A DNA stretch of 64,000 nt from Methylococcales symbiont of Hymedesmia sp. n. MRB-2018 (lineage in GTDB: Bacteria; Pseudomonadota; Gammaproteobacteria; Methylococcales; Methylomonadaceae): contig QPIN01000056.1 of assembly GCA_003666385.1 (NCBI GenBank), positions 1-64,000 on the forward strand, read 5' to 3'. The notes below the pieces were generated by a model. The model worked only from the letters and a program-made list of their open reading frames with translations, was not told the DNA's origin and searched no databases. Shown in pieces: positions 12,277-32,461 of the stretch; within the stretch, counting starts at the first letter, position 1; each line of letters starts with the position of its first letter. The position numbers were made by a program, and so were the translations under genes.

Positions 12277-13170
12277 ATGAATACAAATCAAAACAATTAT
12301 ACAATAGGCAGTTTGTTTGCTGGTGTAGGTGGTATATGTCATGCTTTCAAAGCGGTGTCTTGCGAGGTGTTATGGGCAAATGAAATAGACTCTAATGCTT
12401 GCAAAACTTATAAATTAAATAATAAAAACACTCATTTATTTGAGTGCGATATAAAAGATCTGCATCATAGAGAATTACCAAGCATAGACATTCTAACTGC
12501 CGGCTTCCCTTGTCAGTCGTTTTCACACGCTGGACATAGCAAAGGGTTTGATGATGAAAGGGGAAGGTTGTTTTTTGAAGTGCCAAAATTGCTCGCAAAA
12601 TTACAGCCAAAGGCGTATTTATTAGAAAATGTTCGCGCCCTCGCCACGCACGACAAAGGCAACAGTTTAGACATTGTTAAAAATGCAATATTGCGGTTGG
12701 GGTATTCATTTATTCCCTTTGTTTTAAACGCCGCAAAATACACAAGTATACCGCAGGGCAGAGAACGTATTTATATGCTTGGATTTAGCAACGAGGCAGA
12801 TTTTTACTTTGATGCTCCAACAAAAATAAACGATAAAAAGATTACTGCCTGCCCCTTGTCAAACGCATTTTACATCCCCCAAGAAACCGAAAACACCCCA
12901 AAACCAATTAAAGATTTTTTGCAAAACAATGTGGATGAAAGTTATTTTTACACAGACAAAAATAACCACATCCACAAAAAATCCGCCAAAAATGCCAAGC
13001 GGAATGACACTGTATATCAATATCGCCGCTACTATGTGCGGGATAACAAATCCAATGTTTGCCCCACGCTCACTGCTAATATGGCAGGTGGCGGACATAA
13101 TGTCCCCATTATTTTAGACGGCGGGCGACCACGGAAGCTTACGCCTAAAGAGTGTTTTAATTTGCAATGA
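12277..13170 (+). pseudogene. C5-cytosine DNA methyltransferase, C-terminus lost
   Basis: The 297-residue protein has motif I LFAGVGGICHAF, motif IV GFPCQSFSHAG with the catalytic Cys, motif VI LLENVRAL, motif VIII PQGRERIYM and motif IX TLTANMAGGG. It stops right after the RKLTPKECFNLQ motif that normally precedes motif X. The motif X helix (GNSV-type), needed for AdoMet binding and folding, is missing. The stop overlaps the next gene's ATG. The most economical reading is a deletion joining the methylase to the neighbouring gene, so activity is doubtful. The partner nuclease gene downstream is also broken. Confidence 0.8.
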
Positions 13171-13949
13171 ATACCCAAACACAACACAGTAGCAAACATC
13201 AAAATTATGAAATTCTTAATTTAATAGGCTATGGTTTAGCAAAATTTAACGATGATTTTGTTAAAGAATTTGGTTTTAATAGCAAGACTGCATTTTATAA
13301 TTTTTGTGTTACTAATAAAATTGCCGATACAATTGGCACGGTCAAAAATCGTATGGATTTGTTTGATCCTTTTTTCCCTAATAATGACCGTAAAGGCTGG
13401 TGGCAAAAGGGGGAAGTTTATATCCATAGGAAGACTCTAATTGATGGTCTGTTTGGTGCTGAAAATGTAGTGGAATATGCCGATATTGTTAAACTGTATA
13501 TGCAAGATTTTTTTAATATTAAAGACCTTGATTATCAAACAAAACCTATCATTAAAACCAAGTTTAAAAAGATGCAAGAGACTGGTTTAGAGGCGGAATT
13601 ATTTTTTAAGTATAACTACAATTCTATAGATATTTTTAAAAATGGATTATTAGAGGATGCAAGGCTTTATGGTGATGGCTACGACTTCCAAATTACCAAT
13701 TAACAACGCTCTTATTTAGCAGAAGTAAAAGGCATTAGAGAAAAAACTGGTAAATTTCGCCTCACCAAAAACGAATATCAAAAAGCACAAGACTATCAAA
13801 ATGATTATATTATTGCCGTTGTGCTTAACCTAAATGCCAGCCCTAAAATTTTAACCTTTACAGACCCTGTTAATTGCTTGAGATTTGAGGAGAAATTCTT
13901 TAAACCCAAGATGGTAAGTGAATATTATTTAATGGATATAGTGAAATAA
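13167..13949 (+). pseudogene. DUF3883-type restriction endonuclease interrupted by an in-frame TAA
   Basis: The first segment of 178 residues ends at TAA (13701-13703). The same frame continues for another 81 codons with a clear DUF3883 nuclease-like core: YLAEVKG, then KFRLTKNEYQKAQDY and LTFTDPVNCLRFEEKF. The stop sits inside the predicted nuclease motif (GYDFQITN-stop-QRSYLAEVKG), separating the acidic residue from the ExK. Because the downstream half keeps its frame and conserved motifs, the nonsense mutation is recent, or is read through at low level. Loss of the nuclease together with a truncated methylase next door fits a dying restriction-modification pair. Confidence 0.78.
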
Positions 13950-19417: not shown

Positions 19418-19804
19418 TCAAAACATGAATTAGAATATTTGCGGGGGAATTTTTCCACCACAAACAATACTATGCAATTATCTAAAACCAGAGTTTTACC
19501 CAAAGCCTTTACCGAAAAAGGACTCTATATGTTAGCCACTATCATAAAATCAAAACAAGCAACAAACGCAACACTACAAATTATTGAAACTTTTGCTAAA
19601 GTGAGGGAGTTTAGCAATGTAGCCAAAAGTCTGGCAACAGAAAAAAGTGAGCTTAAAAAACAGAGCCTTATCAAGAAAAGCGGGCAACTTATTGGCGATA
19701 TTCTCAATCAAGAATTTGCTGATGACACCAGTAGCGAAACAACCATTGAACTGAACTTAGCCATGATAAAAATTAAGCATAAAATAATCAAAAACAAAAA
19801 ATAA
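19262..19804 (+). CDS. ORF6N-domain DNA-binding protein
   Basis: The 180-residue protein has an N-terminal ORF6N domain (residues 3-95; IELRSQKVILDSDVAKIYGV, KNNLDKFPDGYIF, TRVLPKAFTEKGLYMLAT) and a coiled-coil C-terminus. ORF6N belongs to the KilA-N-related group of phage and mobile-element DNA-binding domains, so a role as regulator of the adjacent methylase/nuclease module is plausible but inferred. Its last residues (IIKNKK) mirror the C-terminus of the upstream methylase. Its stop overlaps the next start (TAATG), coupling it to the DUF262-HNH gene. Confidence 0.8.
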   Translation: MQSIEPFIIELRSQKVILDSDVAKIYGVETRDINKAVKNNLDKFPDGYIFKLSKHELEYLRGNFSTTNNTMQLSKTRVLPKAFTEKGLYMLATIIKSKQATNATLQIIETFAKVREFSNVAKSLATEKSELKKQSLIKKSGQLIGDILNQEFADDTSSETTIELNLAMIKIKHKIIKNKK

Positions 19805-20889
19805 TGGAGATAAAACTCAAAGAAATAACAGTGGCTGATTTAGTCAAAGATTACGCCGATGATACTGCCAGCGGTCAGGTTGTGGGCTATGGCGGCAAAT
19901 TAGATATTCGCCCTAAATATCAACGCGAATTTATTTACAAAGATGAGCAAAGAAGTGCCGTGATTGACACTTTAACTAAAGATTTTCCCTTAAATGTAAT
20001 GTATTGGGCAGTGCGTGATGACGGTGGTTTTGAAGTGATTGATGGGCAACAACGCACTATTTCGGTATGCCAGTATGTTAATGGCGATTTTTCTTATAAA
20101 GAGTTGTATTTTAATAATCTGCAAGATGATAAGCAAGCACAAATCCTTAACTATAAACTCTCAATTTATCAGTGTAGCGGCAGCGATAGTGAAAAATTAG
20201 AGTGGTTTAAAACCATCAATATCGCAGGTGAAAAACTTACCAACCAAGAATTAAGAAACGCCGTTTATTCTGGTGCGTGGGTGTCTGATGCGAAACGATA
20301 TTTTAGTAGAAATGGCTGTGCCGCTCACAATATTGCCAATAAATATTTAACAGGTTCATCAATCAGGCAAGATTATTTAGAAACTGCGATTAAATGGATT
20401 TCTGATAATAAAATTGAAGATTATATGGCAACAAATCAGCACAAACCCAAGGCAGATGAATTATGGCTGTATTTTCAAAATGTAATAAATTGGGTTGAGA
20501 TAGTTTTTGCAAAATATCGCAAAGAAATGAAAGGCGTTGATTTTGGTTTTTTATACAATCAGTTTAAAGATGATAAATTTGATTCAGATAAATTAGAGGC
20601 AGAAATAGCAAAATTGATGCAAGATGACGATGTTACTAAAAAATCAGGTATTTATCCATTTGCTCTTACAGGAAAAGAAAAATACCTCAACATCCGTGCA
20701 TTTACCGACAATCAAAAACGCGAGACATACGAAAAGCAAAAAGGCATTTGCAAAAAATGTAAAAAAGAATTCACCCTAGTAGAAATGGAAGCCGACCACA
20801 TAAAACCTTGGCACGAAGGCGGAAAAACCATTACTAAAAATTGCCAGATGTTATGTAAAGACGATAATCGCAGGAAGTCTGGGAAGTGA
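19804..20889 (+). CDS. DUF262 / HNH endonuclease (GmrSD-like)
   Basis: The 361-residue protein has an N-terminal DUF262 domain (ParB/Srx-like fold, NTP-binding) with I-D-G-Q-Q-R-T at residues 79-85. A C-terminal HNH nuclease (316-361) carries CKKCKKEF, EADHIKPWHEGG and NCQMLCKDDNRRKSG, so its four zinc cysteines and the catalytic His are present. Such proteins act as modification-dependent or NTP-stimulated nucleases in defence islands. Here it is coupled to ORF6N and lies behind an EcoRI-type methylase, so it may be the nuclease of that module. Its 3' end is duplicated at 25175-25207. The frame is intact. Confidence 0.85.
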   Translation: MEIKLKEITVADLVKDYADDTASGQVVGYGGKLDIRPKYQREFIYKDEQRSAVIDTLTKDFPLNVMYWAVRDDGGFEVIDGQQRTISVCQYVNGDFSYKELYFNNLQDDKQAQILNYKLSIYQCSGSDSEKLEWFKTINIAGEKLTNQELRNAVYSGAWVSDAKRYFSRNGCAAHNIANKYLTGSSIRQDYLETAIKWISDNKIEDYMATNQHKPKADELWLYFQNVINWVEIVFAKYRKEMKGVDFGFLYNQFKDDKFDSDKLEAEIAKLMQDDDVTKKSGIYPFALTGKEKYLNIRAFTDNQKRETYEKQKGICKKCKKEFTLVEMEADHIKPWHEGGKTITKNCQMLCKDDNRRKSGK

Positions 20890-20897
20890 AAAATATT
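20865..20897 (+). repeat. Left copy of 33-bp direct repeat (DUF262-HNH 3' end)
   Basis: The segment covers the codons for RRKSGK, the stop, and 8 bases beyond. It recurs with one mismatch at 25175-25207. The two copies bracket about 4.3 kb containing the inverted-repeat element, VapBC, the type IIG/YebC chimera and the methylase-nuclease fusion. Confidence 0.85.
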
Positions 20898-20900
20898 GAA

Positions 20901-21093
20901 TTAATGGGGACAGGCTACTTTTTAGGGTGTAATACCAATCACCAAAATAAATCACCCATCTAGCATTCATATTTGCACCAACTATAAGCACTATCTGAGC
21001 GATTTATTTTGGTGATTGGTATAATCCAGGTAAAAAAGGATAGCATCCACATTTGCATGGATTACACCCTAAAAAGTAGCCTGTCCCCATTAA
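20901..21093. mobile_element. Perfect 33-bp inverted-repeat element with a second nested inverted repeat
   Basis: The outer arms 20901-20933 and 21061-21093 are exact reverse complements over 33 bp (starting TTAATGGGGACAGGCTAC). The inner arms 20933-20953 and 21001-21021 (TACCAATCACCAAAATAAAT core) are exact over 21 bp. No ORF lies between them. The terminal GGGGACAGGCTAC word resembles sequences seen next to REP-associated transposases. The element lies just upstream of vapB and could form a cruciform or terminate transcription from the left. Confidence 0.85.
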
Positions 21094-21111
21094 TACACAA
21101 AGAGGTAAAAA

Positions 21112-21345
21112 ATGTTAAGCACTGCCCATAGAACCAATGTTGTCTTAGATGAAAACATCGTCCAAGAAGCCCTAAAACTCAGCCAAATAAAAACTAAACG
21201 TGCCTTGATAGACACCGCCCTAAAAGAGTTTATTGCCAATCATAAAAAGCCAAATATTATGGATTTATTGGGCATGGGCAGTATTGATAAGGATTATGAT
21301 TACAAAGCATTACGCGGTAGAGACCACCTGCCAAAGTTAAAATAA
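21112..21345 (+). CDS. vapB: VapB-family antitoxin
   Basis: The 77-residue protein has a short N-terminal ribbon-helix-helix-like segment (RTNVVLDENIVQEALKLSQI) typical of the VapB (DUF2191-type) antitoxins, and a C-terminal toxin-binding tail. An AGAGG ribosome site precedes ATG. It is followed after 2 bases by the PIN toxin. Antitoxins of this kind repress their own promoter, which here must lie in or next to the inverted-repeat element. Confidence 0.85.
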   Translation: MLSTAHRTNVVLDENIVQEALKLSQIKTKRALIDTALKEFIANHKKPNIMDLLGMGSIDKDYDYKALRGRDHLPKLK

Positions 21346-21347
21346 TT

Positions 21348-21743
21348 GTGTATTTAATAGATTCATCGGTTTGGATAGATGGCATCAACGGCAAAGCCAA
21401 GACAGTTAAATTTCTCAGACAACTGTCGCCAGAGGCATTAGGGATAAATTTACTCATTTATACTGAGGTATTGCAAGGGGCAAGCACTCAGAAATTGCTT
21501 AATGTGCAACAATCCTATTTATCGGCACAGCCTTTCTACGGCTTTCAAAACGATAAAATCAGCCATCAACAAGCGGCTAATATTTATAGAAAATGTCGTC
21601 AAAATGGCGTTACACCACGTTCCACTATAGATTGCCTCATCGCCCAATGTGCCATAGAAAATGATTTAATCTTATTACACAATGATAAAGATTTTGTAAA
21701 AATCGCCAGTGTAATGCCCAATTTACAACAAACAGCCATTTAA
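21348..21743 (+). CDS. vapC: VapC PIN-domain ribonuclease toxin
   Basis: The 131-residue PIN domain has acidic residues in [10 protein letters not shown] (D5, D11), E41 in YTEVLQG, D98 in STIDCLIA and D117 in HNDKDFV, the expected metal-binding set. The usual role is endonucleolytic cleavage of tRNA or rRNA when freed from VapB. The start is GTG, 2 bases after the vapB stop. All catalytic residues are present, so it is probably active. Confidence 0.88.
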
Positions 21744-21744
21744 T

Positions 21745-23067
21745 ATGGATTTTAAGCAAGCCTACAACCAACCCAATTATCTTAATTTTTTAAGCGAAAA
21801 GTTTAATTTTTCTAAAACCTTAACGCCTATTACAATCAACAATACAGAGGTTAAAACCTTTAAGTCATTAGGATATATAACAACGGCTGATGACAAACAA
21901 TTACCCGTTTTTGAAATCCACATCAAACCCAATACCAAATTATCACGCAATCGGGCTGGCTTGCGCAATCTAGTTGCCAAACAAATCCCACCAGAAGATG
22001 GCGCTTTAGCAGTTTATGTGGATGGTGAAAACAAACAGTGGCGTTTTAGTTTTATTGCCATTGAATATAAATTCACCGAAGATGGTTTAGAAAAACAGCA
22101 AACAGCCAGTAAACGCTTTACCTATCTTTTAGGTGAAAATGCCCAAATTAGAACTGCCAAACAGCGTTTTGAAACCCTTAATAAAACCTCAACATTAGCA
22201 GACTTAAAAGCCGCTTTTGCGGTTGAGCAACTTAACAAGGATTTTTATAAACAATTATACGATTGGTATAACCACGCCAAAGAAAAAGTGATTTTCCCCA
22301 ATGACGAAAACGCCAAAAGCCATATTGAGGATAGTTTAATCCGCTTTTTAACACGGATTTTATTCGTCTGGTTTCTCAAAGAAAAACACCTAATTAACAA
22401 AGATTTATTTGATTTAACCAAACTCAAAAACTTGATTAAATATGAAGAAGACAGCAGTTTCTACAAAGCTATTTTACAAAATCTATTTTTTGCCACGCTA
22501 AATCGTCAAATAAAAGACCGTAGTTTTCGCCGCACCACCAATGGCAAGCCCAATAACACCAATTATTTAGCCGCCAATATTTATCGTTATCAAAATTATT
22601 TTCAAAACAACGATGAGCAAGAAATTATGGATTTATTCAAGCAAACCCCGTTTTTAAACGGCGGCTTATTTGAATGTTTAGACCGCGAGGCAACAGATGA
22701 AGAAAAATCGGCCTACGACCAAGACAAAACCGTCCGCAAAATTGGCAGTGCCATTCGCATTGATGGCCTTTCTGATAGAAAAAATAATGCATTAGATTTT
22801 GACAATGCCTTATTTTTTAACACTAACGAAACAGGCTTATGTGATTTATTCAAGCAATACCAATTTACCGTAGAAGACGCACTCACCGATGCAGGATTGC
22901 AAGCAAGCCACGCCGAAGTAACCATGGAACCCGCCACCCGCGTCGAACTCAACCTCGTCAACGCCGAAAAATTTATGAAACTAATTGAACGCCTAGAAGA
23001 CCTAGACGACACCCAAGAGGTTTATCACAATGCTGATATTTCTGATGAAGTGATGGCTCAGTTATAA
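21745..23067 (+). CDS. Chimera: N-terminus of Eco57I-like type IIG enzyme fused to YebC C-terminus
   Basis: Residues 1 to about 374 match the N-terminal, non-catalytic region of Eco57I-like type IIG enzymes ([69 protein letters not shown]). From about residue 376 the sequence becomes the C-terminal domain of the YebC/TACO1 family ([41 protein letters not shown]) and ends at YebC's natural stop. No methylase motifs (NPPY) remain, so type IIG activity is lost. Codon usage in the last 200 bases is visibly more GC-rich, as if captured from another genome. It starts 1 base after vapC. Function, if any, is unknown. Confidence 0.85.
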
Positions 23068-23076
23068 AATTATTCC

Positions 23077-25143
23077 ATGCCAAAAATAAAAGACATTCCA
23101 AAAGTTGAACGCCCAAGAGAGCGATTATTGCAAAAAGGCGCTAACGCATTATCCAAAACCGACCTTTTAGCGATTTTGCTTGGAAGTGGCATTAAAGGTG
23201 TAAATGTAGAAGAGTTATCTACTCAGATTATTAATAAATTTGGCAAAAATTTTCTTAATGTCAGCATTAAAGATTTAACATCTGTTAAAGGTATCGGCGA
23301 AGTTAAGGCGCTGCAAATACATTCCGCTATTGAACTGGTTAAGCGTTTTGATGAGCCAAAAAATACCAATCAATTAACCTTTATGGATTTTTGTGCTGGG
23401 GTTGGTGGTGGTCGTCTGGCTTTAGATAACCTAGGTATGCAGTGTGTTGGATTTTCTGAAATTGATGAAAATGCTGAAAAAACTTATCGTCTATTATTCA
23501 ATGATAAAGGCAAAAATTACGGTGATTTAACCAAAATAAATGCAGATAAATTGCCTGATTTTGATGTGATGATTGCAGGTTTTCCTTGTCAGGCTTTTTC
23601 TGTTTTAGGCAAGAGGCAAGGCATTTATGACAAGGTGCAAAAGAAAGGGGAAATCATTTTTCACTTGATAGAATTTTTAATTGCAAAGTCTGTTAAATTT
23701 TTTATTTTTGAAAATGTAAAGGGTTTGATAGGTCACGATAACGGCTTAACTTTAAAAATAATTTTAGATGAATTAGATAAAGCTGGATATTTTGTTAAAT
23801 GGCAAATGTTAAATAGCATTGATTATGGCACGCCACAAATGAGAGAGCGTATTTATTTTGTAGGAGTAAAAAAGGAACTGTTAGGAGATAATAACTTTGA
23901 TTTTGATTTTCCTCAGAAGTTGACTAAAAAATCCAATGTAACTGATTTTTTAATTGATAATGTAGAACTAGATTTTAACGATAAGCAGCAAACATACAAA
24001 ACCTTTCAAAGATACTTAGAAAACAAATACAATAAAGATAAATTTAGCGTTGCAGAATTATTAAAAGAGGAAAATTTGGTTATAGATACTCGGCAATCAG
24101 ATTTAAGGAAATATTACAACAGAGTGCCAACTTTAAGGCTAGGAAGACACGGTATTTTGTATGTTAGAAATGGTAAATTTAGAAAATTATCTGGTTATGA
24201 ATCTTTTTTATTACAGGGGTTTGGTAAAGAAAAAGCCCAAAAAGCTAGAGACAATATTTTAGATATACACTTACTAAAACAAGCTGGCAATGCAATGACT
24301 GTTAGCACGGTTCAGGCGATTGCCGCTAAGGTGTTGAAGTTTATCAATAATTTAGAGATGGTCAATATGAACAAAAAACAAAAAATAGGTTCAAAGACAG
24401 CGAAAGACGGGTTTAAAAATGAATTGGGTGTTGTTGACGCTTTTAATTGCTGGAAAACTAATGATTCTGCTCAAAAATGGTTAATGGCTATGGATTACCA
24501 TTTAGAAGATATTGAGCATGTTGAAGCCCATCAAATTAGCGGATATAAAGCAGATGTACAAGTAGAAATTAAAATATCAATCAAATTAAAACATTTAACA
24601 GATGTGCAAAACTTACAAGTTAAATTGGTAACTAATGATGAAGATAAAAAATTATCAGGCAAAAATCAAATTGATAAAAGATGGGTGGAAACCTATCAGG
24701 AATTGTGGAATATTCCTAAAAATGTGGTAAAAATTTTAAAGCACTTTACAGGCGAATTACCGCCGCATATAGATAACGCAAGAGACCCTAGGCGGATGTT
24801 TATTAATGAATTATCGCAGCAGGATAGAGTAGCATTATTTGATTTTTTAAAAGCTAATCAGTTACTAATAGTTAGTGATATATTAAAAGGTAGAGGTAAA
24901 CTTGCTGCTGAATGGATGTTGGTAATTGTAAGAAATAGAGACTATAAAATCACTCACTGGGCATTAAAATCCATCAATGTTGTTTGTAATTTTTTTGGCA
25001 ATGGTGAGATAGAAATATCACCACAAGGAAGCATTAAAATTGGTAAGATTTTAATGCAAAGAAAAGGCGGAGATGGTGGCAGGCCTAGTGCAAATATGTT
25101 GCAATTTAACATAGACCCAACAAAATTAATAGACATAATGTAA
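23077..25143 (+). CDS. Single-chain fusion: RadC N-terminal domain / C5-cytosine methylase / HinP1I-like restriction endonuclease
   Basis: Residues 1-92 are the RadC (UPF0758) N-terminal domain (RPRERLLQKGANALSKTDLL, HhH at TSVKGIGEVKALQI) without the RadC JAB peptidase. Residues 100-427 are a complete C5 methylase: CAGVGGG, GFPCQAFS, FENVKG, QMRERIYF and motif X QAGNAMTV. Residues 431-688 match R.HinP1I (GCGC-specific): GSKTAKDGFKNE, HFTGELPP, RRMF, DILKGRGKLAAEWML and RKGGDGGRPSANMLQF, with putative catalytic D493 and Q514-V-K516. An internal ATG at 24367 could give a free nuclease. All motifs are present, so it is a candidate for active modification and cleavage at GCGC. Confidence 0.88.
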   Translation: MPKIKDIPKVERPRERLLQKGANALSKTDLLAILLGSGIKGVNVEELSTQIINKFGKNFLNVSIKDLTSVKGIGEVKALQIHSAIELVKRFDEPKNTNQLTFMDFCAGVGGGRLALDNLGMQCVGFSEIDENAEKTYRLLFNDKGKNYGDLTKINADKLPDFDVMIAGFPCQAFSVLGKRQGIYDKVQKKGEIIFHLIEFLIAKSVKFFIFENVKGLIGHDNGLTLKIILDELDKAGYFVKWQMLNSIDYGTPQMRERIYFVGVKKELLGDNNFDFDFPQKLTKKSNVTDFLIDNVELDFNDKQQTYKTFQRYLENKYNKDKFSVAELLKEENLVIDTRQSDLRKYYNRVPTLRLGRHGILYVRNGKFRKLSGYESFLLQGFGKEKAQKARDNILDIHLLKQAGNAMTVSTVQAIAAKVLKFINNLEMVNMNKKQKIGSKTAKDGFKNELGVVDAFNCWKTNDSAQKWLMAMDYHLEDIEHVEAHQISGYKADVQVEIKISIKLKHLTDVQNLQVKLVTNDEDKKLSGKNQIDKRWVETYQELWNIPKNVVKILKHFTGELPPHIDNARDPRRMFINELSQQDRVALFDFLKANQLLIVSDILKGRGKLAAEWMLVIVRNRDYKITHWALKSINVVCNFFGNGEIEISPQGSIKIGKILMQRKGGDGGRPSANMLQFNIDPTKLIDIM

Positions 25144-25174
25144 ATCTTTTATGGGGATAGAGCAAAGGTTGTAA

Positions 25175-25207
25175 TAACCGCAGGAAGTCTGGGAAGTGAA
25201 AAATATT
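25175..25207 (+). repeat. Right copy of 33-bp direct repeat (DUF262-HNH 3' end)
   Basis: The segment repeats 20865-20897 with one mismatch. Here it is detached from any HNH gene. What follows (AAAGGTAAAAATG) probably represents the original downstream sequence, with a 17-codon ORF running into the first type IIG tail remnant. Confidence 0.85.
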
Positions 25208-25253
25208 AAAGGTAAAAATGAATAGCGAAGAATACGGTTGGCATATTGGCGAC

Positions 25254-25334
25254 GAAACCAAAATTGACTAGATGGTCTATAAACTCTACAACCTAAGCAC
25301 CGCTGAAATCAAAATCATTGAGGCTGAAAAATGA
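25254..25334 (+). pseudogene. Type IIG C-terminal tail remnant 1
   Basis: The translation reads ETKID-stop-MVYKLYNLSTAEIKIIEAEK and then TGA. This matches the extreme C-terminus of Eco57I/TaqI-like type IIG enzymes (usual form IDxLVYxLYxLTxxEIxIIE). It has one in-frame TAG. The final TGA overlaps the ATG of the following TPR gene, preserving the ancestral ATGA coupling. It is the first of five such tails in the island. Confidence 0.75.
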
Positions 25335-26638
25335 ATAAAAAAGCAGTGAAATTTTTCAATCAAGGCAATGATTATTTTGAAGCAAAAGAATTTGATCTCG
25401 CCATTCAGAATTACAACAAAGCTATTAAATTAAAGCCCGATTCTGCTGAGGCTTTTAGCAATCGTGGGATGGCTTATGCCGATAAAGGAGAATTTGATCG
25501 TGCCATCAAAGATTTTGACCAAGCTATTAAATTAAACCCCAAGTTTGCTGAGGCTTTTAACAGTCGTGGGCTGGCTTATGACGGGAAAGGTGAACTTGAT
25601 CGCGCCATTGAGGATTACAACGAAGCTATTGAATTAAACCCTAAATACGCTGAGGCTTTTAGCAATCGTGGGGTGGCTTATGGCAAGAAAAGAAAATTTG
25701 ACCGTGCCATTGAGGATTACAACAAAGCTATTACATTAAACCCTGAATACGTTAAGGCTTTTTACAATCGTGGGCTGGCTTATGTCCGGAAAGGAGAACT
25801 TGATCGTGCCATCAAAGATTTTGACCAAGCTATTAAATTAAACCCTGAATACGCCGATGCTTTTAACGGTCGTGGGGTAACTTATGTTCAGAAAGAAGAA
25901 CTTGATCGTGCCATCAAAGATTTTGACCAAGCTATTAAATTAAACCCTGAATACGCCGATGCTTTTAACGGTCGTGGGGTAACTTATGGCAAGAAAGGAG
26001 AAGCTGATCGTGCCATTCAGGACTTTGACCAAGCTATTGAATTAAACCCTGAACACGCTGGTGCTTTTAACGGTCGTGGATTGACTTACCGCAAAATAGG
26101 AAAAGAAAAAGAGGCAATAGAAGATTTTCAAAAGGCAAATGAATTAGATCCGACTGTTATTCCACAAAAGCAAGTTGAGGAAACAGAAAAGAAAATTGAA
26201 GAAACAAAAAAGGAAGTTAAAGAAGTCCAAGATTTTCAAAGTATTTTGACCGACTTAAAAACCGAGTATACAAAAGACGAGAAGCGGTGGTTTTGGGCAA
26301 GCACTATTTTTACTGTGCTTGTTTTTGTGGGTTTATTGGCTTTAACCTTTTACTATAAAGTGGATTATAAAATCTCATATTCCCTCTATATTTTTTCATC
26401 AATCATCACTTTTGTTGTCATTCGTCAATATACCAATGCCAAACAACTTAGGATTGAAAGCAGTAACCGCCTAGCAATGGCAAAAATGTTTGAAAAAATA
26501 CAAGCAAGCAAAGACAATCAGCACTATCAAGCTTTTATACCTAAAATAATTGATAGCATCACTTACTCAATGTATAAAAACCACAAAGAATCAACAGTGA
26601 AAATTATTGAAGAATTAAAATCAATATTCAAAAAATAG
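25331..26638 (+). CDS. TPR-repeat membrane protein 1
   Basis: The 435-residue protein has eight tetratricopeptide repeats (residues 1-276; consensus AEAFNNRGxAYxxKGEFDRA then IxDYNxAIxLNPxY). A charged coiled coil (about 285-315) follows, then two membrane segments (WASTIFTVLVFVGLLALTFY and YSLYIFSSIITFVVI) and a conserved C-terminal domain of about 70 residues. No enzymatic motif is visible. The repeats could be a protein-binding sensor facing the cytoplasm. It is nearly identical in its C-terminal 150 residues to the protein at 30848, differing mainly by three fewer repeats. The start overlaps the type IIG tail. Function unknown. Confidence 0.82.
   Translation: MNKKAVKFFNQGNDYFEAKEFDLAIQNYNKAIKLKPDSAEAFSNRGMAYADKGEFDRAIKDFDQAIKLNPKFAEAFNSRGLAYDGKGELDRAIEDYNEAIELNPKYAEAFSNRGVAYGKKRKFDRAIEDYNKAITLNPEYVKAFYNRGLAYVRKGELDRAIKDFDQAIKLNPEYADAFNGRGVTYVQKEELDRAIKDFDQAIKLNPEYADAFNGRGVTYGKKGEADRAIQDFDQAIELNPEHAGAFNGRGLTYRKIGKEKEAIEDFQKANELDPTVIPQKQVEETEKKIEETKKEVKEVQDFQSILTDLKTEYTKDEKRWFWASTIFTVLVFVGLLALTFYYKVDYKISYSLYIFSSIITFVVIRQYTNAKQLRIESSNRLAMAKMFEKIQASKDNQHYQAFIPKIIDSITYSMYKNHKESTVKIIEELKSIFKK
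25445..26158 (+). repeat. Seven tandem 102-bp units encoding TPR motifs
   Basis: Each unit encodes 34 residues. Units 5 to 7 share blocks identical at the DNA level (for example GATCGTGCCATCAAAGATTT), so the array can expand or contract by recombination or slippage in whole repeats without changing frame. The paralogue at 30962-31981 has ten comparable units. Confidence 0.9.
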
Positions 26639-26658: not shown

Positions 26659-26742
26659 TTAAAAACCAAAATTGATACAATAGTCTATAAAATATACAAG
26701 CTAAGCACTACTGAAATCAAAATTATTGAGGGTGAAAAATGA
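26659..26742 (+). pseudogene. Type IIG C-terminal tail remnant 2
   Basis: The translation reads LKTKIDTIVYKIYKLSTTEI then KIIEGEK-stop, an uninterrupted copy of the type IIG tail. It follows TPR gene 1 after 20 bases, and its stop again overlaps a TPR start (ATGA). The 20-bp lead-in GACTGCCATCAACACCACG also follows TPR gene 2. Confidence 0.75.
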
Positions 26743-26858
26743 ATAAAGAAGCAGAGAAATTTTTCAATCAAGGCAATGCTCATTTTGAAGCAAAAGAATT
26801 TGATCTTGCCATTAAAAATTACAAGCAAGCTATTGAATTAAACCCTCGATCTTGCTGA
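26739..26858 (+). pseudogene. 5' fragment of a third TPR gene
   Basis: The first 36 codons match the start of the TPR genes (NKEAEKFFNQGNAHFEAKEF, then DLAIKNYKQAIELNP). A frameshift at about 26847 then causes a stop; the other frame continues briefly as AEAFKYKE. The rest of the gene, including the membrane part, is gone. The AAA-subtilase pair begins about 115 bases further on, so that pair appears to have replaced most of this copy. Confidence 0.8.
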
Positions 26859-26972
26859 GGCTTTTAAATATAAAGAGATTATAATACCACTCGCAACCCT
26901 TGCTAAAAATAGTGGGTTTGATTGTGAATGGACATATTAAAATAAAAAAGATAATTAATAAGGATAACTATA

Positions 26973-27947
26973 ATGGCTCAAGCAGATTTACTGGTAAATT
27001 TAGTTAAAAATGCAAGTAATGGCGACCAGTTAGGAGTGCGTAAGATTGCGCAAAATTTAATCCAAGAAGAGAAAAATAAAGGTCACAGGATATTAGCAGA
27101 TAGATTGATAGAGGCACTAAAGCCAACCGTTAAAAAATCTATAAATAAAATAAGCAATAACAATTCTAATGCTGATTTATATTTTGAAACAACACCAGAA
27201 AGAGGCTTAAACAGCTTGGTATTGCCAGATAAAATTCGCGAACAAATACAAGAGCTAGTTGAAGAGCAACATAGAAGCGAGTTATTACATTCTTACAATC
27301 TAAGAGCAAGAAATAGTTTATTGTTTGCAGGCCCTCCGGGTAATGGCAAAACGACATTAGCAGAAGCATTAGCGCACGAATTGATGTATCCATTATTAGT
27401 GGTGCGTTATGAAAATTTAGTCGGTAGTTATTTAGGCGAAACCTCTGGGCGTTTAAAGTCAGTATTGGATTATGCTAAAACAATGCGCTGTGTGTTATTT
27501 TTTGATGAATTTGAAACGCTGGCAAAAGAGCGAGGCGATACACACGAAACAGGGGAGATTAAAAGAGTAGTGAGTTCACTGTTATTACAATTAGATAGCT
27601 TGCCTGATTATGTTGTAGTCGTTACTGCAAGCAATCACCCGGAGTTGTTAGATAGGGCAGTATGGCGGCGTTTTCAAGTTAGAGTAGAATTGCCATTACC
27701 CACAAGAACACAGCTAACAGATTTTATTACTCAAATAAGCAAACGCTGTAATGTTGAATTTGGACTAGCCGCAGAAACAATCGCCAAACATTTGAAAGGG
27801 TTAAATTTTGCCGAAGCCGAAGAGTTTTGTTTAGGCATTGTTAGAAAAGCCATTTTAGATAAAAAGCAAAATAACGCCAAAACTATTACCAATCTCAAAT
27901 TAACCCAATATAGAAGCAGGCTAAAACCAGTCACTAATAAGGATTAA
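26973..27947 (+). CDS. AAA ATPase partner of a subtilisin-like protease
   Basis: The 324-residue protein has a helical N-terminal region (1-80) and one AAA module: Walker A GPPGNGKTT (120-128), Walker B CVLFFDEFE (173-181), sensor 1 TASN (218-221), and the arginine-finger region WRRF (231-234), with a C-terminal helical lid. It resembles the FtsH/Cdc48-type ATPases that occur directly upstream of S8 peptidase genes in bacterial accessory regions. It probably unfolds or delivers substrate to, or gates, the protease encoded 2 bases downstream. A AGGATAAC-type ribosome site precedes ATG. The frame is intact. Confidence 0.85.
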   Translation: MAQADLLVNLVKNASNGDQLGVRKIAQNLIQEEKNKGHRILADRLIEALKPTVKKSINKISNNNSNADLYFETTPERGLNSLVLPDKIREQIQELVEEQHRSELLHSYNLRARNSLLFAGPPGNGKTTLAEALAHELMYPLLVVRYENLVGSYLGETSGRLKSVLDYAKTMRCVLFFDEFETLAKERGDTHETGEIKRVVSSLLLQLDSLPDYVVVVTASNHPELLDRAVWRRFQVRVELPLPTRTQLTDFITQISKRCNVEFGLAAETIAKHLKGLNFAEAEEFCLGIVRKAILDKKQNNAKTITNLKLTQYRSRLKPVTNKD

Positions 27948-27949
27948 TT

Positions 27950-30670
27950 ATGGCGGATAATTTGCCTTTATTGTTTTTTCCAAATGCAAGAAGAGCAACC
28001 CCAGAAGCAGCATCAGGATTTCCACCATCTCAACCACATTTTCCAACACATAATATTCAAGCACAACGCTTAAAAACAAAAATTGATAAATTACAAGCCA
28101 GTATTAATATGGCTGGATTAGAGCCAGAAACGGTTTTGGTGATAGAAATTATAGGGCGTATTGAAAATTTTAAAAATGCAATTGATAGAACAGGTGGACT
28201 AGAGTGGATGGGGGAGTGGGATATTGATGATATTGAGGCTGATGATAATTTTTATGAGCCGCCCACAATAGGTGTTGATTTTTTCAAAAATAAAATTGAT
28301 GGCATTGCCACACGAGTGCAATCCAAGGAGATTCAAGAACAACTAATAGAGATAGGATTTATTAACCACAAAGGAGAAATTATTGGCGATAATTCGTTAT
28401 TAATTGGCTTTGAAAATAATATTATTGATGCAATAAATCAAGCAAAAAATAAACCTTTATCTGGTAGATTGTTTTTGTCGTTCAGTAATCAACAGGGAAT
28501 GCAAGAGTTGTTATCGCTATTCAAAAAATGGCAAAAAGGCGAGCAATTTCCAATGGGTCAAACAAAGTGGCGTGATGTATTTACTCAAATTAGAGATATT
28601 CGTAAATGGGGCATTCAAGAAGCATTAAAAGACACTAGAATGGTAGAGCGTTGGAATGATGATTTTATAAACCATCCAGATGATTCAAACAAAACTTTTC
28701 AAATTGAATTGTTTTATCGCAGTAATCAAAACAAAAGATCAAATAATGAAGACAAAATAAAGCAATTATTACAAAACCAAGGTGGCGAGATTATTGCCAC
28801 TATAGATAAACCAGAAATAGCTTTTCATGCAGTTAAAGCAAAATTACCTACTAATAAAATACGTGATTTATTAGATAATTTAGATTCATCAGACACAACA
28901 GATATAGAATTATTTAACTTTTCAGGCATTATGTATTGCTATCCAACGGGGCAAAATATATCTACGCCAAGTGATGATGATATTGACGCTAAACATATTG
29001 AATTAACAGAATTACCAAAATCAGATTTTCCACCTATAGTTGCCATTCTTGATGGTGTGCCAAATACTCAACATATCGCATTAAAAAATAGATTATTACT
29101 GGATGATCCTGATAATTTATCTGCCACTTATCAGACGGGTAAAAGAGGCCACGGCACAGCCATGGCATCACTGGTAATTCATGGTGATTTATCCAACCCA
29201 ACAACCTTAACAAGCAATGTTTATCATTTGCCAGTTATGCAATATAAACAAGACGATGAAGGTTTTCCTGATGAAATATTTTTTGAAGATAGGATTGAGC
29301 GAGCAGTTAGGCGTATATTTGAAGGTGAAGGTGATACACCTGCACAAGCACCACATATAAAAATTATCAATATTTCATTAGGTGATCCAGATCGTCTATT
29401 TATTCATTTTCCCAGTCCATGGGCGCGACTATTGGATTATTTATCTGATAAATATCAAGTGTTGTTTTGTGTCAGTGCTGGCAACTATGTGGATGACTTT
29501 AATATGGACATCCCTTATGGAGAATTTAGTGCATTATCGAACAATGATAAAAACAAGCATATTGTAAAATGTATCAGCAAACAGTTATCACAAAGACGAC
29601 TATTATCACCTGCTGAATCGTTAAATTCATTGACAATCGGTGCTTTAAATATGGATGATTCTAGCGGATTTGCACTTGCTAATAACATTGATTTATTGCC
29701 AGATAATTTATTTAGCCCTCTTTCGCGTTTTGGCTATGGATTTAGAAATTCCATAAAGCCAGAGATATATTTTGCAGGTGGTAAGCAACTATACATCTCT
29801 CCTCATGTTGATAGTGCAACAGAATGCAAGCTTAACGAATACAACATAAAACCAGGGCAACAAGTGGCAGCAGATGGCTCACAACAAGGCGAATTATCAC
29901 AAACAAAATACACTGCTGGCACAAGCAATGCTTGTGCGTTAGCCACCCATAGTGGTGCTAGAATTTATGAAGTATTATCAAAATTACAAGCAGAGAATAA
30001 TGAAAATATAGATGATGAGTTAATGGCGGTGCTAATTAAAGCTTTATTGGTGCATGGTGCTAAACAAGATAATGCTAGCAAGCAAATATTAAAAGAATTA
30101 AAAACTGCTAATAATTCAAGAGTATTTAAGAAAGTTATCAATCGTTATTTAGGTTATGGCTCGGTTGATATTGAGAGGGTTTTGGCTTGCACCGAGCAAC
30201 GCGGCACAGTGTTAGGCAGTGGTAAAATTAAACAGAACGAAACGCATGAATATATTTTTCCAATACCTTATGGGTTGTCAGGCGAAAAAGTTTGGCGAAG
30301 CATGACTATTACTTTGGCGTGGTTTTCACCAATTAATACTAATCATAGAAATTTAAGACAAGCTAAATTAAGTTTTGAACCGCCAAAAAATAACGATTCT
30401 GTATTGAATATTAGTAGAATAGATTCAAATCATCATATAGTCAATAAAGGTACTGTTCAACATGAAATTTTGACAGGTAAAAATAAAATATTAGCCTTTC
30501 AAGATAATGAACATATCAAATTACATATAAATTGTAAAAAAGATGCAATAGAAACTTTAGATAAAGAGATATGTTACGGTCTGGCGGTTACTTTAGAGCT
30601 TGAAGATGGTGTGAGTATTGATATTTACAATCAAATTAAAAATAGAATACAACAAGTTATTCAAGTTTAA
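27950..30670 (+). CDS. Subtilisin-like (S8) serine protease, intracellular
   Basis: The 906-residue protein has a non-catalytic N-terminal region of about 350 residues and an S8 domain with the full triad: D368 (VAILDGVPN), H401 (GKRGHGTAMAS) and S659 (AGTSNACA). Asn in CVSAGNYVDD supplies the oxyanion-hole segment. A C-terminal beta-rich domain of about 170 residues follows. No signal peptide is visible, so it should act in the cytoplasm. It is encoded 2 bases after the AAA ATPase, which fits a two-component, ATPase-controlled protease. A role as an effector that cleaves host or phage proteins during infection is inference from the defence-island setting. Confidence 0.87.
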   Translation: MADNLPLLFFPNARRATPEAASGFPPSQPHFPTHNIQAQRLKTKIDKLQASINMAGLEPETVLVIEIIGRIENFKNAIDRTGGLEWMGEWDIDDIEADDNFYEPPTIGVDFFKNKIDGIATRVQSKEIQEQLIEIGFINHKGEIIGDNSLLIGFENNIIDAINQAKNKPLSGRLFLSFSNQQGMQELLSLFKKWQKGEQFPMGQTKWRDVFTQIRDIRKWGIQEALKDTRMVERWNDDFINHPDDSNKTFQIELFYRSNQNKRSNNEDKIKQLLQNQGGEIIATIDKPEIAFHAVKAKLPTNKIRDLLDNLDSSDTTDIELFNFSGIMYCYPTGQNISTPSDDDIDAKHIELTELPKSDFPPIVAILDGVPNTQHIALKNRLLLDDPDNLSATYQTGKRGHGTAMASLVIHGDLSNPTTLTSNVYHLPVMQYKQDDEGFPDEIFFEDRIERAVRRIFEGEGDTPAQAPHIKIINISLGDPDRLFIHFPSPWARLLDYLSDKYQVLFCVSAGNYVDDFNMDIPYGEFSALSNNDKNKHIVKCISKQLSQRRLLSPAESLNSLTIGALNMDDSSGFALANNIDLLPDNLFSPLSRFGYGFRNSIKPEIYFAGGKQLYISPHVDSATECKLNEYNIKPGQQVAADGSQQGELSQTKYTAGTSNACALATHSGARIYEVLSKLQAENNENIDDELMAVLIKALLVHGAKQDNASKQILKELKTANNSRVFKKVINRYLGYGSVDIERVLACTEQRGTVLGSGKIKQNETHEYIFPIPYGLSGEKVWRSMTITLAWFSPINTNHRNLRQAKLSFEPPKNNDSVLNISRIDSNHHIVNKGTVQHEILTGKNKILAFQDNEHIKLHINCKKDAIETLDKEICYGLAVTLELEDGVSIDIYNQIKNRIQQVIQV

Positions 30671-30710: not shown

Positions 30711-30851
30711 TTAATAAAATCAGTTAAAATCCTCACTGCCAAAAAAGACGGCAAAGACACCACCACTTTAGAAGCCCAAATAGATAAAATAGTGTATAAA
30801 CTCTACAACCTAAGCACCGCTAAAATAAAAATTATTGAGGCTGAAAAATGA
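30711..30851 (+). pseudogene. Type IIG C-terminal tail remnant 3 (longest)
   Basis: The 46-codon remnant reads LIKSVKILTAKKDGKDTTTL and continues EAQIDKIVYKLYNLSTAKIK then IIEAEK-stop. It is the least eroded of the five tails, and its TGA overlaps the ATG of TPR gene 2. The upstream sequence is not type IIG-like, so the body of the enzyme was lost at about 30700. Confidence 0.75.
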
Positions 30852-32461
30852 ATAAAAAAGCAGTGAAATTTTTTAATCAAGGCAATGATTATTTTGAAGC
30901 AAAAGAATTTGATCTCGCCATTCAGGATTACAAGCAAGCTATTAAATTAAACCCCAAGTTTACTGAGGCTTTTAGCAATCGTGGGATGGCTTATGCCGAT
31001 AAAGGAGAATTTGATCGTGCCATTGAGGATTACAACGAAGCTATTGAATTAAACCCTAAATACGCTGAGGCTTTTAACGGTCGTGGGTCGGCTTATGACG
31101 GGAAAGGAGAATTTGATCGTGCCATTGAGGATTACAACGAAGCTATTGAATTAAACCCTAAATACGCTGAGGCTTTTAACAATCGTGGGGTGGCTTATGG
31201 CGAGAAAAGAGAATTTGATCGTGCCATCAAAGATTTTGACCAAGCTATTAAATTAAACCCTGAATACGCCGATGCTTTTAACGGTCGTGGGGTGGCTTAT
31301 CGCAAGAAAGGAGAATTTGATCGTGCCATTCAGGACTTTGACCAAGCTATTGAATTAAACCCTGAACACGCTGAGGCTTTTAACAATCGTGGGTCGGCTT
31401 ATGGCGAGAAAGAAGAGTTTGATCGTGCCATTGAGAATTACAACCAAGCCATTAAATTAAAACCTGATTTTGCTGGTGCTTTTAACAATCGTGGGACGGC
31501 TTATCGCAAGAAAGGAGAATTTGATCGTGCCATCAAAGATTTTGATCAAGCTATTAAATTAAACCCTGAATACGCTGAGGCTTTTAACAATCGTGGAACG
31601 GCTTATGCCGAGAAAGGAGAACTTGATCGTGCCATTGAGGATTACAACCAAGCCATTAAATTAAAACCTGATTTTGCTGGTGCTTTTAACAATCGTGGGT
31701 TGGCTTATGACGAGAAAGGTGAATTTGATCGTGCCATTGAGGATTACAACCAAGCTATTAAATTAAACCTCGAGTTTGCTGAGTCTTTTTATAATCGTGG
31801 GACAACTTATGGCAAGAAAGGAGAAGCTGATCGTGCCATTCAGGACTTTGACCAAGCTATTGAATTAAAGCCCGATTTTGCTAAGGCTTTACACAATCGT
31901 GGAGTGACTTATCGCAAAATAGGAAAAGAAAAAGAGGCAATAGAAGATTTTCAAAAAGCAAATGAATTAGATCCGACTGTTATTCCACAAAAGCAAGCTG
32001 AAGAAACAAAAAAGAAAATTGAAGAAACAAAAAAGGAAGTTGAAAAAGTCCAAGATTTTCAAAGTATTTTGACAGATTTAAAAACCGAGTATACAAAAGA
32101 CGAGAAGCGGTGGTTTTGGGCAAGCACTATTTTTACTGTGCTTGTTTTTGTGGGTTTATTGGCTTTAACCTTTTATTATAAAGTGGATTATAAAATCTCA
32201 TATTCCCTCTATATTTTTTCATCAATCATCACTTTTGTTGTCATTCGTCAATATACCAATGCCAAACAACTTAGGATTGAAGGCAGTAACCGCCTGGCAA
32301 TGGCAAAAATGTTTGAAAAAATACAAGCAAGCAAAGACAATCAGCACTATCAAGCTTTTATACCTAAAATAATTGATAGCATCACTTACTCAATGTATAA
32401 AAACCACAAAGAATCAACAGTGAAAATTATTGAAGAATTAAAATCAATATTCAAAAAATAG
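30848..32461 (+). CDS. TPR-repeat membrane protein 2
   Basis: The 537-residue protein has eleven tetratricopeptide repeats (residues 1-378), a charged coiled coil, two membrane segments and a conserved C-terminal domain. From the last repeat on, it is nearly identical to TPR protein 1, including silent positions, indicating a recent duplication or gene conversion. It is exactly 102 residues (three repeats) longer. No catalytic motif is visible. It follows the AAA-subtilase pair, so the two TPR genes bracket that pair. A sensor or adaptor role for the protease is a hypothesis only. The start overlaps tail remnant 3. Confidence 0.82.
   Translation: MNKKAVKFFNQGNDYFEAKEFDLAIQDYKQAIKLNPKFTEAFSNRGMAYADKGEFDRAIEDYNEAIELNPKYAEAFNGRGSAYDGKGEFDRAIEDYNEAIELNPKYAEAFNNRGVAYGEKREFDRAIKDFDQAIKLNPEYADAFNGRGVAYRKKGEFDRAIQDFDQAIELNPEHAEAFNNRGSAYGEKEEFDRAIENYNQAIKLKPDFAGAFNNRGTAYRKKGEFDRAIKDFDQAIKLNPEYAEAFNNRGTAYAEKGELDRAIEDYNQAIKLKPDFAGAFNNRGLAYDEKGEFDRAIEDYNQAIKLNLEFAESFYNRGTTYGKKGEADRAIQDFDQAIELKPDFAKALHNRGVTYRKIGKEKEAIEDFQKANELDPTVIPQKQAEETKKKIEETKKEVEKVQDFQSILTDLKTEYTKDEKRWFWASTIFTVLVFVGLLALTFYYKVDYKISYSLYIFSSIITFVVIRQYTNAKQLRIEGSNRLAMAKMFEKIQASKDNQHYQAFIPKIIDSITYSMYKNHKESTVKIIEELKSIFKK
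30962..31981 (+). repeat. Ten tandem 102-bp units encoding TPR motifs
   Basis: There are ten 34-codon units with long identical DNA blocks between units and with the array at 25445-26158. Differences are concentrated at TPR positions that normally face ligands (for example GSAYGEKEE versus GTAYRKKGE), so unit shuffling could change binding specificity. Confidence 0.88.

What the first reader, a model, noticed from the sequence alone, without database searches (positions are those of the whole stretch)
23077..25143. One polypeptide combining a RadC N-terminal domain, a full C5 methylase and a HinP1I-like restriction nuclease
Seen: an unbroken 688-codon frame carries the RadC HhH-type N-domain (1-92, no JAB domain), all C5-methylase motifs I-X (100-427), and a nuclease closely matching R.HinP1I (431-688). 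Known: HinP1I and its methylase are separate proteins recognising GCGC. Inference: a self-contained restriction-modification enzyme, with an HhH domain that could add DNA binding. Fusing M and R changes how cells avoid self-cleavage. An internal ATG (24367) preceded by GAGATGG might still make free nuclease.
Basis: partly seen in the sequence, partly recalled or inferred. Interest (0 to 1): 0.8.

Follow-up and report, generated by a model that had tools for sequence, protein, structure and literature searches.

The report
Fused methylase–nuclease with RadC-derived head
In a bacterium with a methane-oxidation gene, a single 688-residue protein joins a DNA-marking enzyme to the matching DNA-cutting enzyme, with a piece of an unrelated DNA-associated protein (RadC) at its front; it is a natural one-piece version of a normally two-protein phage-defence system, and it points to a RadC branch that is repeatedly welded to such systems.

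Summary
In detail: window 23077-25143 is one unbroken 688-codon frame with UPF0758_N/RadC-N (4-78), a C5 methylase (101-420) and R.HinP1I (472-684, E 5e-80). Active-site residues of both enzymes are kept. The methylase–nuclease join is not an assembly error: two decayed copies, in a same-genus species and in a distant gammaproteobacterial family, read in frame through the same junction. In four independent M-then-R loci the two are separate genes. I read it as a natural type IIC-like HinP1I-family enzyme, probably GCGC-specific (inferred).
The RadC piece is not from the host's own radC (38% identity). It belongs to a RadC subfamily (66-70%) fused elsewhere to quite different methylases (RadC::C5 with an NgoFVII-type nuclease; RadC::D12 with AlwI), placed just after housekeeping genes. 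Here it arrived with a foreign yebC tail and is probably a leader left by insertion.
Methylase::nuclease fusion as such is not unique: the same genome has a C5::HpaII fusion. New is this C5::HinP1I pair and the RadC::methylase family, unreported in the papers I could search.

The parts
23077..25143 (+). 688-codon gene: RadC-N :: C5 methylase :: HinP1I-type nuclease
23077..23352 (+). RadC N-terminal (UPF0758_N, HhH) domain, residues 1-92; 66-70% identical to a methylase-associated RadC subfamily, 38% to the host's own RadC
23359..24366 (+). C5-cytosine methylase, residues 95-430; motifs I, IV, VI, VIII, X present
24367..25140 (+). R.HinP1I-type nuclease, residues 431-688; D493/Q514/K516
24355..24369 (+). 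GAGATGG...ATG: possible internal ribosome site and start giving free nuclease (258 aa); AGGGATAGAAAATATG stands at the same place in both other fused copies
   Evidence: sequence only
22867..23064 (+). foreign YebC C-terminal tail (residues 375-440 of ORF 21745-23067), 78-79% nt identity to f117 genomes, 43% aa to the host's own YebC
21745..22866 (+). N-terminal part of an Eco57I-like type IIG enzyme, truncated and joined in frame to the YebC tail
20864..20900 (+). left copy of a 37-bp direct repeat (3' end of the GmrSD-N/HNH gene 19804-20889) flanking the inserted block
25174..25210 (+). right copy of the 37-bp direct repeat, 95% identical

Best explanation
A natural one-polypeptide type II restriction-modification enzyme. 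The C5 methylase half methylates a site (most likely GCGC) in the host's DNA, and the HinP1I-type half cuts the same site in incoming unmethylated DNA. The two halves became one chain when the methylase stop codon was lost from an M-then-R operon whose genes overlap or almost touch in relatives. HinP1I nucleases act as monomers, one strand at a time, so an attached methylase need not block a dimer interface. Each half keeps its own recognition surface, unlike classical type IIC/IIG enzymes that share one specificity module. Some free nuclease may still be made from the internal ATG. The RadC-N head was acquired when the M-R unit sat in, or inserted into, a yebC-radC region of another gammaproteobacterium; the whole piece (yebC tail, radC start, M-R) then moved into this defence island. 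I think the head mainly supplies the start codon and first residues. Shown: the domains, motifs, in-frame junction in three genomes, separate genes in relatives, foreign origin of the flanks. Inferred: enzyme activity, GCGC specificity, stop-loss route, passenger role of RadC-N.
For: Domains and motifs. In-frame junction 'FINNLEMVNMNKKQKIGSKTA' is matched by 'FINNLGIENMGGKQKLGSETA' (G001) and 'FINNLGIENMDDKQKLGSKTAKDGF' (G723, 75% nt). M and R are separate genes in L012, L032, L033 and L128. Past purifying selection on R. In Spiroplasma the HinP1I-type R is paired with an HhaI-like methylase, which fits GCGC. An engineered R-M fusion of another cytosine-methylating system (Eco29kI) is fully functional (PMC3039593). 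HinP1I is monomeric and nicks strands in turn (PMC4081073). Foreign yebC/radC pieces.
Against: No activity data. The RadC-N-M join occurs in one assembly only. Both other fused copies are decayed, so fusion may be a step towards loss. GCGC is under-represented (0.55 of expected) but so are several other palindromes. S61 of HinP1I is alanine here (also in L012 and L128). The fold model of the nuclease half was poor because the alignment was shallow.
Confidence: 0.68

Rival explanations
1. RadC-N is a working part: members of this RadC subfamily are recruited as N-terminal modules of methylases, so that the HhH domain brings the enzyme to particular DNA structures (forks, single-stranded or branched DNA). 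The window protein is a shortened member without the JAB domain.
For: The same subfamily is fused to two unrelated methylase classes: RadC(N+JAB)::C5 in L099, L097 and L098, and RadC::D12 in L069 (its start also in L096). HhH hairpin residues are kept and the 92 aa are conserved.
Against: The G723 M-R copy starts at its own ATG without RadC. In L069 a second methylase gene carries only the first nine RadC residues, as part of a duplicated nrdA-tail/radC-start stretch, which shows that such heads can arise from insertion alone.
Confidence: 0.2
2. The gene is a fossil in the making or only methylase-active: the fusion has lost nuclease activity and persists as an orphan C5 methylase on its way to decay.
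For: Both sister copies are broken; the neighbouring type IIG gene is truncated.
Against: The frame is intact over 688 codons, the catalytic residues of the nuclease are kept, and dN/dS on R is about 0.13 against G730 (this measures past, not present, selection).
Confidence: 0.15
3. Assembly or sequencing artefact joins separate genes.
For: The RadC-M join is seen in one assembly; reads are not available.
Against: The M-R join is shared by three genomes; other RadC::methylase fusions exist in several genomes.
Confidence: 0.05

Closest known systems
R.HinP1I / M.HinP1I-type type II RM systems (Pfam PF11463)
   Same: Nuclease matches over its full length, E 5e-80; catalytic D/Q/K and the QIDK segment are kept; methylase gene next to it, upstream
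   Different: Separate genes in the four independent M-then-R relatives found here; one chain in this window and its two decayed kin
Type IIC/IIG combined enzymes (Eco57I, MmeI, BpuSI)
   Same: Methylase and nuclease in one polypeptide
   Different: Those are described mostly as N-terminal PD-(D/E)XK plus gamma-class N-methylase with a shared specificity module (PMC4081073); here a C5 methylase comes first and each half has its own recognition part
Engineered RM.Eco29kI fusion (PMC3039593)
   Same: Two-gene cytosine-methylating system turned into one functional chain by removing the stop; the authors predicted natural cases
   Different: Engineered; R precedes M; GIY-YIG nuclease
C5 methylase::HpaII nuclease fusions (own genome L031 3085-5046; also L107, L114)
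   Same: Natural C5 methylase followed by its nuclease in one chain, one of them in the same genome
   Different: Different nuclease family (RE_HpaII); no RadC head; met more often in the genomes sampled
RadC::methylase fusions (L099, L097, L098, L069)
   Same: Same RadC subfamily at the N terminus (66-70%), methylase after it, restriction genes downstream in L099 and L069
   Different: They keep the JAB domain and their nucleases are separate genes; the methylases are of other types

Membership tests
R.HinP1I nuclease family | full-length match above the curated cut-off | tested here: met
   268 bits against cut-off 25; profile 1-207/208
R.HinP1I nuclease family | catalytic D62, Q81, K83 equivalents | tested here: met
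   D493, Q514, K516; residue roles recalled from the HinP1I structure papers, not read here
R.HinP1I nuclease family | cuts GCGC | not testable with these tools
   needs enzyme
C5 cytosine methylase | motifs I, IV (PCQ), VI (ENV), VIII (QxRxR), X (GN) | tested here: met
C5 cytosine methylase of a GCGC system | target specificity GCGC | tested here: inconclusive
   target-recognition part differs from M.HhaI; inferred from pairing with HinP1I-type R in several loci
RadC (UPF0758) | N-terminal HhH domain | tested here: met
   UPF0758_N 3.6e-23
RadC (UPF0758) | JAB/JAMM domain | tested here: not met
   no PF04002 match in the window protein; present in L099, L097, L069, L096
Type IIC (combined) restriction enzyme | both enzymes in one chain | tested here: met
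   domains by sequence only; activities untested
Type IIC (combined) restriction enzyme | gamma- or alpha-class N-methylase as described for known members | tested here: not met
   C5 methylase; description from PMC4081073
RM insertion with target duplication | direct repeat of target flanking the inserted block | tested here: met
   37-bp repeat 20864/25174, 95%; empty site not seen, so mechanism not proven

The most novel reading that the evidence does not exclude
A RadC subfamily is a recurrent, functional front module of mobile type II RM systems: the HhH part (with or without JAB) steers different methylases, and here a complete methylase::nuclease chain, to particular DNA structures, giving modification and restriction tied to replication or recombination intermediates.
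Probability: 0.13. Interest if true: 0.78.

Novelty: new variant of a known kind. Interest (0 to 1): 0.52.

Why it matters
It is a natural case of what the engineered Eco29kI work predicted: a two-gene type II system becoming one chain by loss of a stop codon, preserved with intermediates (separate genes, nearly touching genes, fused, fused and decayed). It lets one test how a self-protecting enzyme with two separate recognition surfaces avoids suicide. The side finding, a RadC branch repeatedly fused to unrelated methylases, gives RadC, a protein of unknown function, a new and testable link with restriction-modification.

Tried and rejected
Own radC as source of the head: rejected (38% identity; a tree puts the two in separate clades, 100/99). 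Viral source: no viral relative of the fused protein or its nuclease found with the patterns used, no phage-record match for the nuclease. GCGC avoidance as a sign of activity: inconclusive (0.55; CCGG 0.30 and GGCC 0.41 are lower). Fold prediction with a six-row alignment: methylase part good, nuclease part poor (mean pLDDT 65), so not used; a helix 409-445 across the junction is only suggestive. My first idea that the M-R block replaced the middle of one type IIG gene is weakened by the 37-bp repeat: the IIG-like tail at 25219-25331 lies outside the repeat and its stretch recurs three times. L097 joins the RadC::methylase to ribosomal protein S5 and may be a misassembly; I do not rely on it. 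L129 (G849) has its decayed HinP1I-type nuclease upstream of an HhaI-like methylase and was not counted among the M-then-R loci.

Full report
What is there. The frame 23077-25143 on the + strand is open for 688 codons. Pfam places UPF0758_N at 4-78, DNA_methylase at 101-420 and R-HINP1I at 472-684, all far above cut-off, and finds no JAB domain. Against solved structures the C-terminal part aligns with R.HinP1I over 436-687 (E 2e-77) and the middle with M.HhaI over 95-419 (E 5e-42). The C5 motifs and the nuclease residues D493, Q514 and K516 are in place. The host has a PmoA/AmoA-type monooxygenase and groups with a family of many genera; I take it for a methanotrophic gammaproteobacterium, possibly of the mussel-symbiont kind (inference).

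The methylase-nuclease join is real and older than this genome. PF11463 is rare: matches over the cut-off in 2 of 311 genomes of the order, 3 of 399 of the phylum sample and 2 of 83 in family f117. The second hit in the order is a decayed remnant in a same-genus species between hpf- and mgtE-like genes; its junction reads FINNLGIENMGGKQKLGSETA in frame. In f117 (small genomes, probably the sulfur-oxidiser group Thioglobaceae, by inference from size and content) G723 has a copy 75% identical in DNA over window 23372-25125, again reading in frame through the junction although broken elsewhere. Four other loci (a Neisseriaceae MAG, Spiroplasma, Mycoplasmopsis, G364) keep methylase and nuclease as separate genes that overlap or nearly touch. 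In Spiroplasma the two are in the same frame, parted by a stop and four codons. So fusion needs one small change. Selection has kept the nuclease in the past: dN 0.16, dS 1.24 against G730.

The RadC head is foreign. The host's own RadC is 38% identical. The head is 66-70% identical to a RadC subfamily found in 6 of 83 f117 genomes and in G407, with nothing so close in the 399-genome phylum sample. A tree separates this subfamily from ordinary RadC with 100/99 support, and G730 and G732 carry both kinds. In this subfamily the gene is fused to methylases: RadC with JAB plus a C5 methylase, followed by an NgoFVII-type nuclease, in L099; RadC with JAB plus a D12 adenine methylase, with an AlwI nuclease two genes further on, in L069; L098 and L097 also carry RadC plus C5; L068 keeps a RadC start joined to a decayed C5 remnant. 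Most of these genes start 4-20 bases after the stop of a housekeeping gene (lpdA, purF or nrdA; in L099 115 bases). In the window the upstream piece is a yebC tail 78-79% identical in DNA to f117 yebC and only 43% to the host's own YebC protein. So yebC tail, radC start and M-R most likely came together from elsewhere.

How it may have moved. The block is flanked by a 37-bp direct repeat of the 3' end of the upstream GmrSD-N/HNH gene, 95% identical. In L069 a stretch of nrdA tail plus the first 33 bases of radC is duplicated around the restriction genes (91-92%), and in L126 stretches of the flanking gene are repeated up to three times. This resembles the insertion with long target duplication described for RM systems (Nobusato 2000, seen as a reference in PMC3874152). 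In L069 the second methylase gene thus carries only nine RadC residues. This is why I rate the RadC head of the window protein as more probably an insertion-derived leader than a working module, while leaving the working-module reading open.

How it most likely works. HinP1I is a monomer that cuts one strand at a time (PMC4081073), and C5 methylases act as monomers (own knowledge). A chain of both can work without a dimer interface. An engineered fusion of Eco29kI R and M kept both activities (PMC3039593). One chain fixes the ratio of the two activities at 1:1; the internal ATG with GAGATGG upstream may add free nuclease. GCGC specificity is inferred from the nuclease family and from the HhaI-like partner methylase in Spiroplasma.

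Comparison with the known. Known type IIC enzymes are described with gamma- or alpha-class methylases (PMC4081073). A C5 methylase before a nuclease in one chain is nevertheless not unique: this genome carries a 653-aa C5::HpaII fusion, and genomes of another family have 654-656-aa proteins of the same make-up (by sequence resemblance). I found no report of C5::HinP1I or RadC::methylase fusions in the papers I could search; subscription papers and REBASE were out of reach. RadC domains in multidomain proteins of mobile elements have been described and a nucleic-acid-processing role proposed (PMC5512222), but not this pairing in the passages I read. Verdict: new variant of a known kind.

Noticed in passing
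L031 3085-5046 (-), host contig C63: Second one-chain RM in the same genome: C5 methylase fused to RE_HpaII (653 aa); CCGG is the most depleted palindromic tetramer in the host sequence held (0.30 of expected). Same make-up in L107 and L114.
   Followed up: partly
L069 2914-4692; L099 5680-7398: Full RadC (N + JAB) fused to a D12 adenine methylase (AlwI system) and to a C5 methylase (NgoFVII-type system): a RadC::methylase family.
   Followed up: partly
window 21745-23067: Truncated Eco57I-like type IIG N-terminus joined in frame to a foreign YebC tail.
   Followed up: partly
window 25254-25483, 26662-26891, 30771-31000: A 230-nt stretch (type IIG-like C-terminal tail plus start of a TPR gene) is repeated three times around defence genes, as if the island grew by insertions with target duplication.
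   Followed up: partly
window 26973-30670: AAA ATPase and S8 peptidase pair resembling the IteA/IteS anti-phage system, below the curated cut-offs.
   Followed up: no
window 20897-20933 and 21061-21097: 37-nt inverted repeat (97%) with GGGGACAGGCTACTTTTT, REP-like, next to a small gene pair whose second member has a PIN domain (21112-21743).
   Followed up: no
window 12286-13182: Another C5 methylase match, interrupted by a TGA stop.
   Followed up: no
L126 (G723): A reverse-transcriptase-like gene and the decayed M-R lie between repeated pieces of a glcE-like gene.
   Followed up: partly
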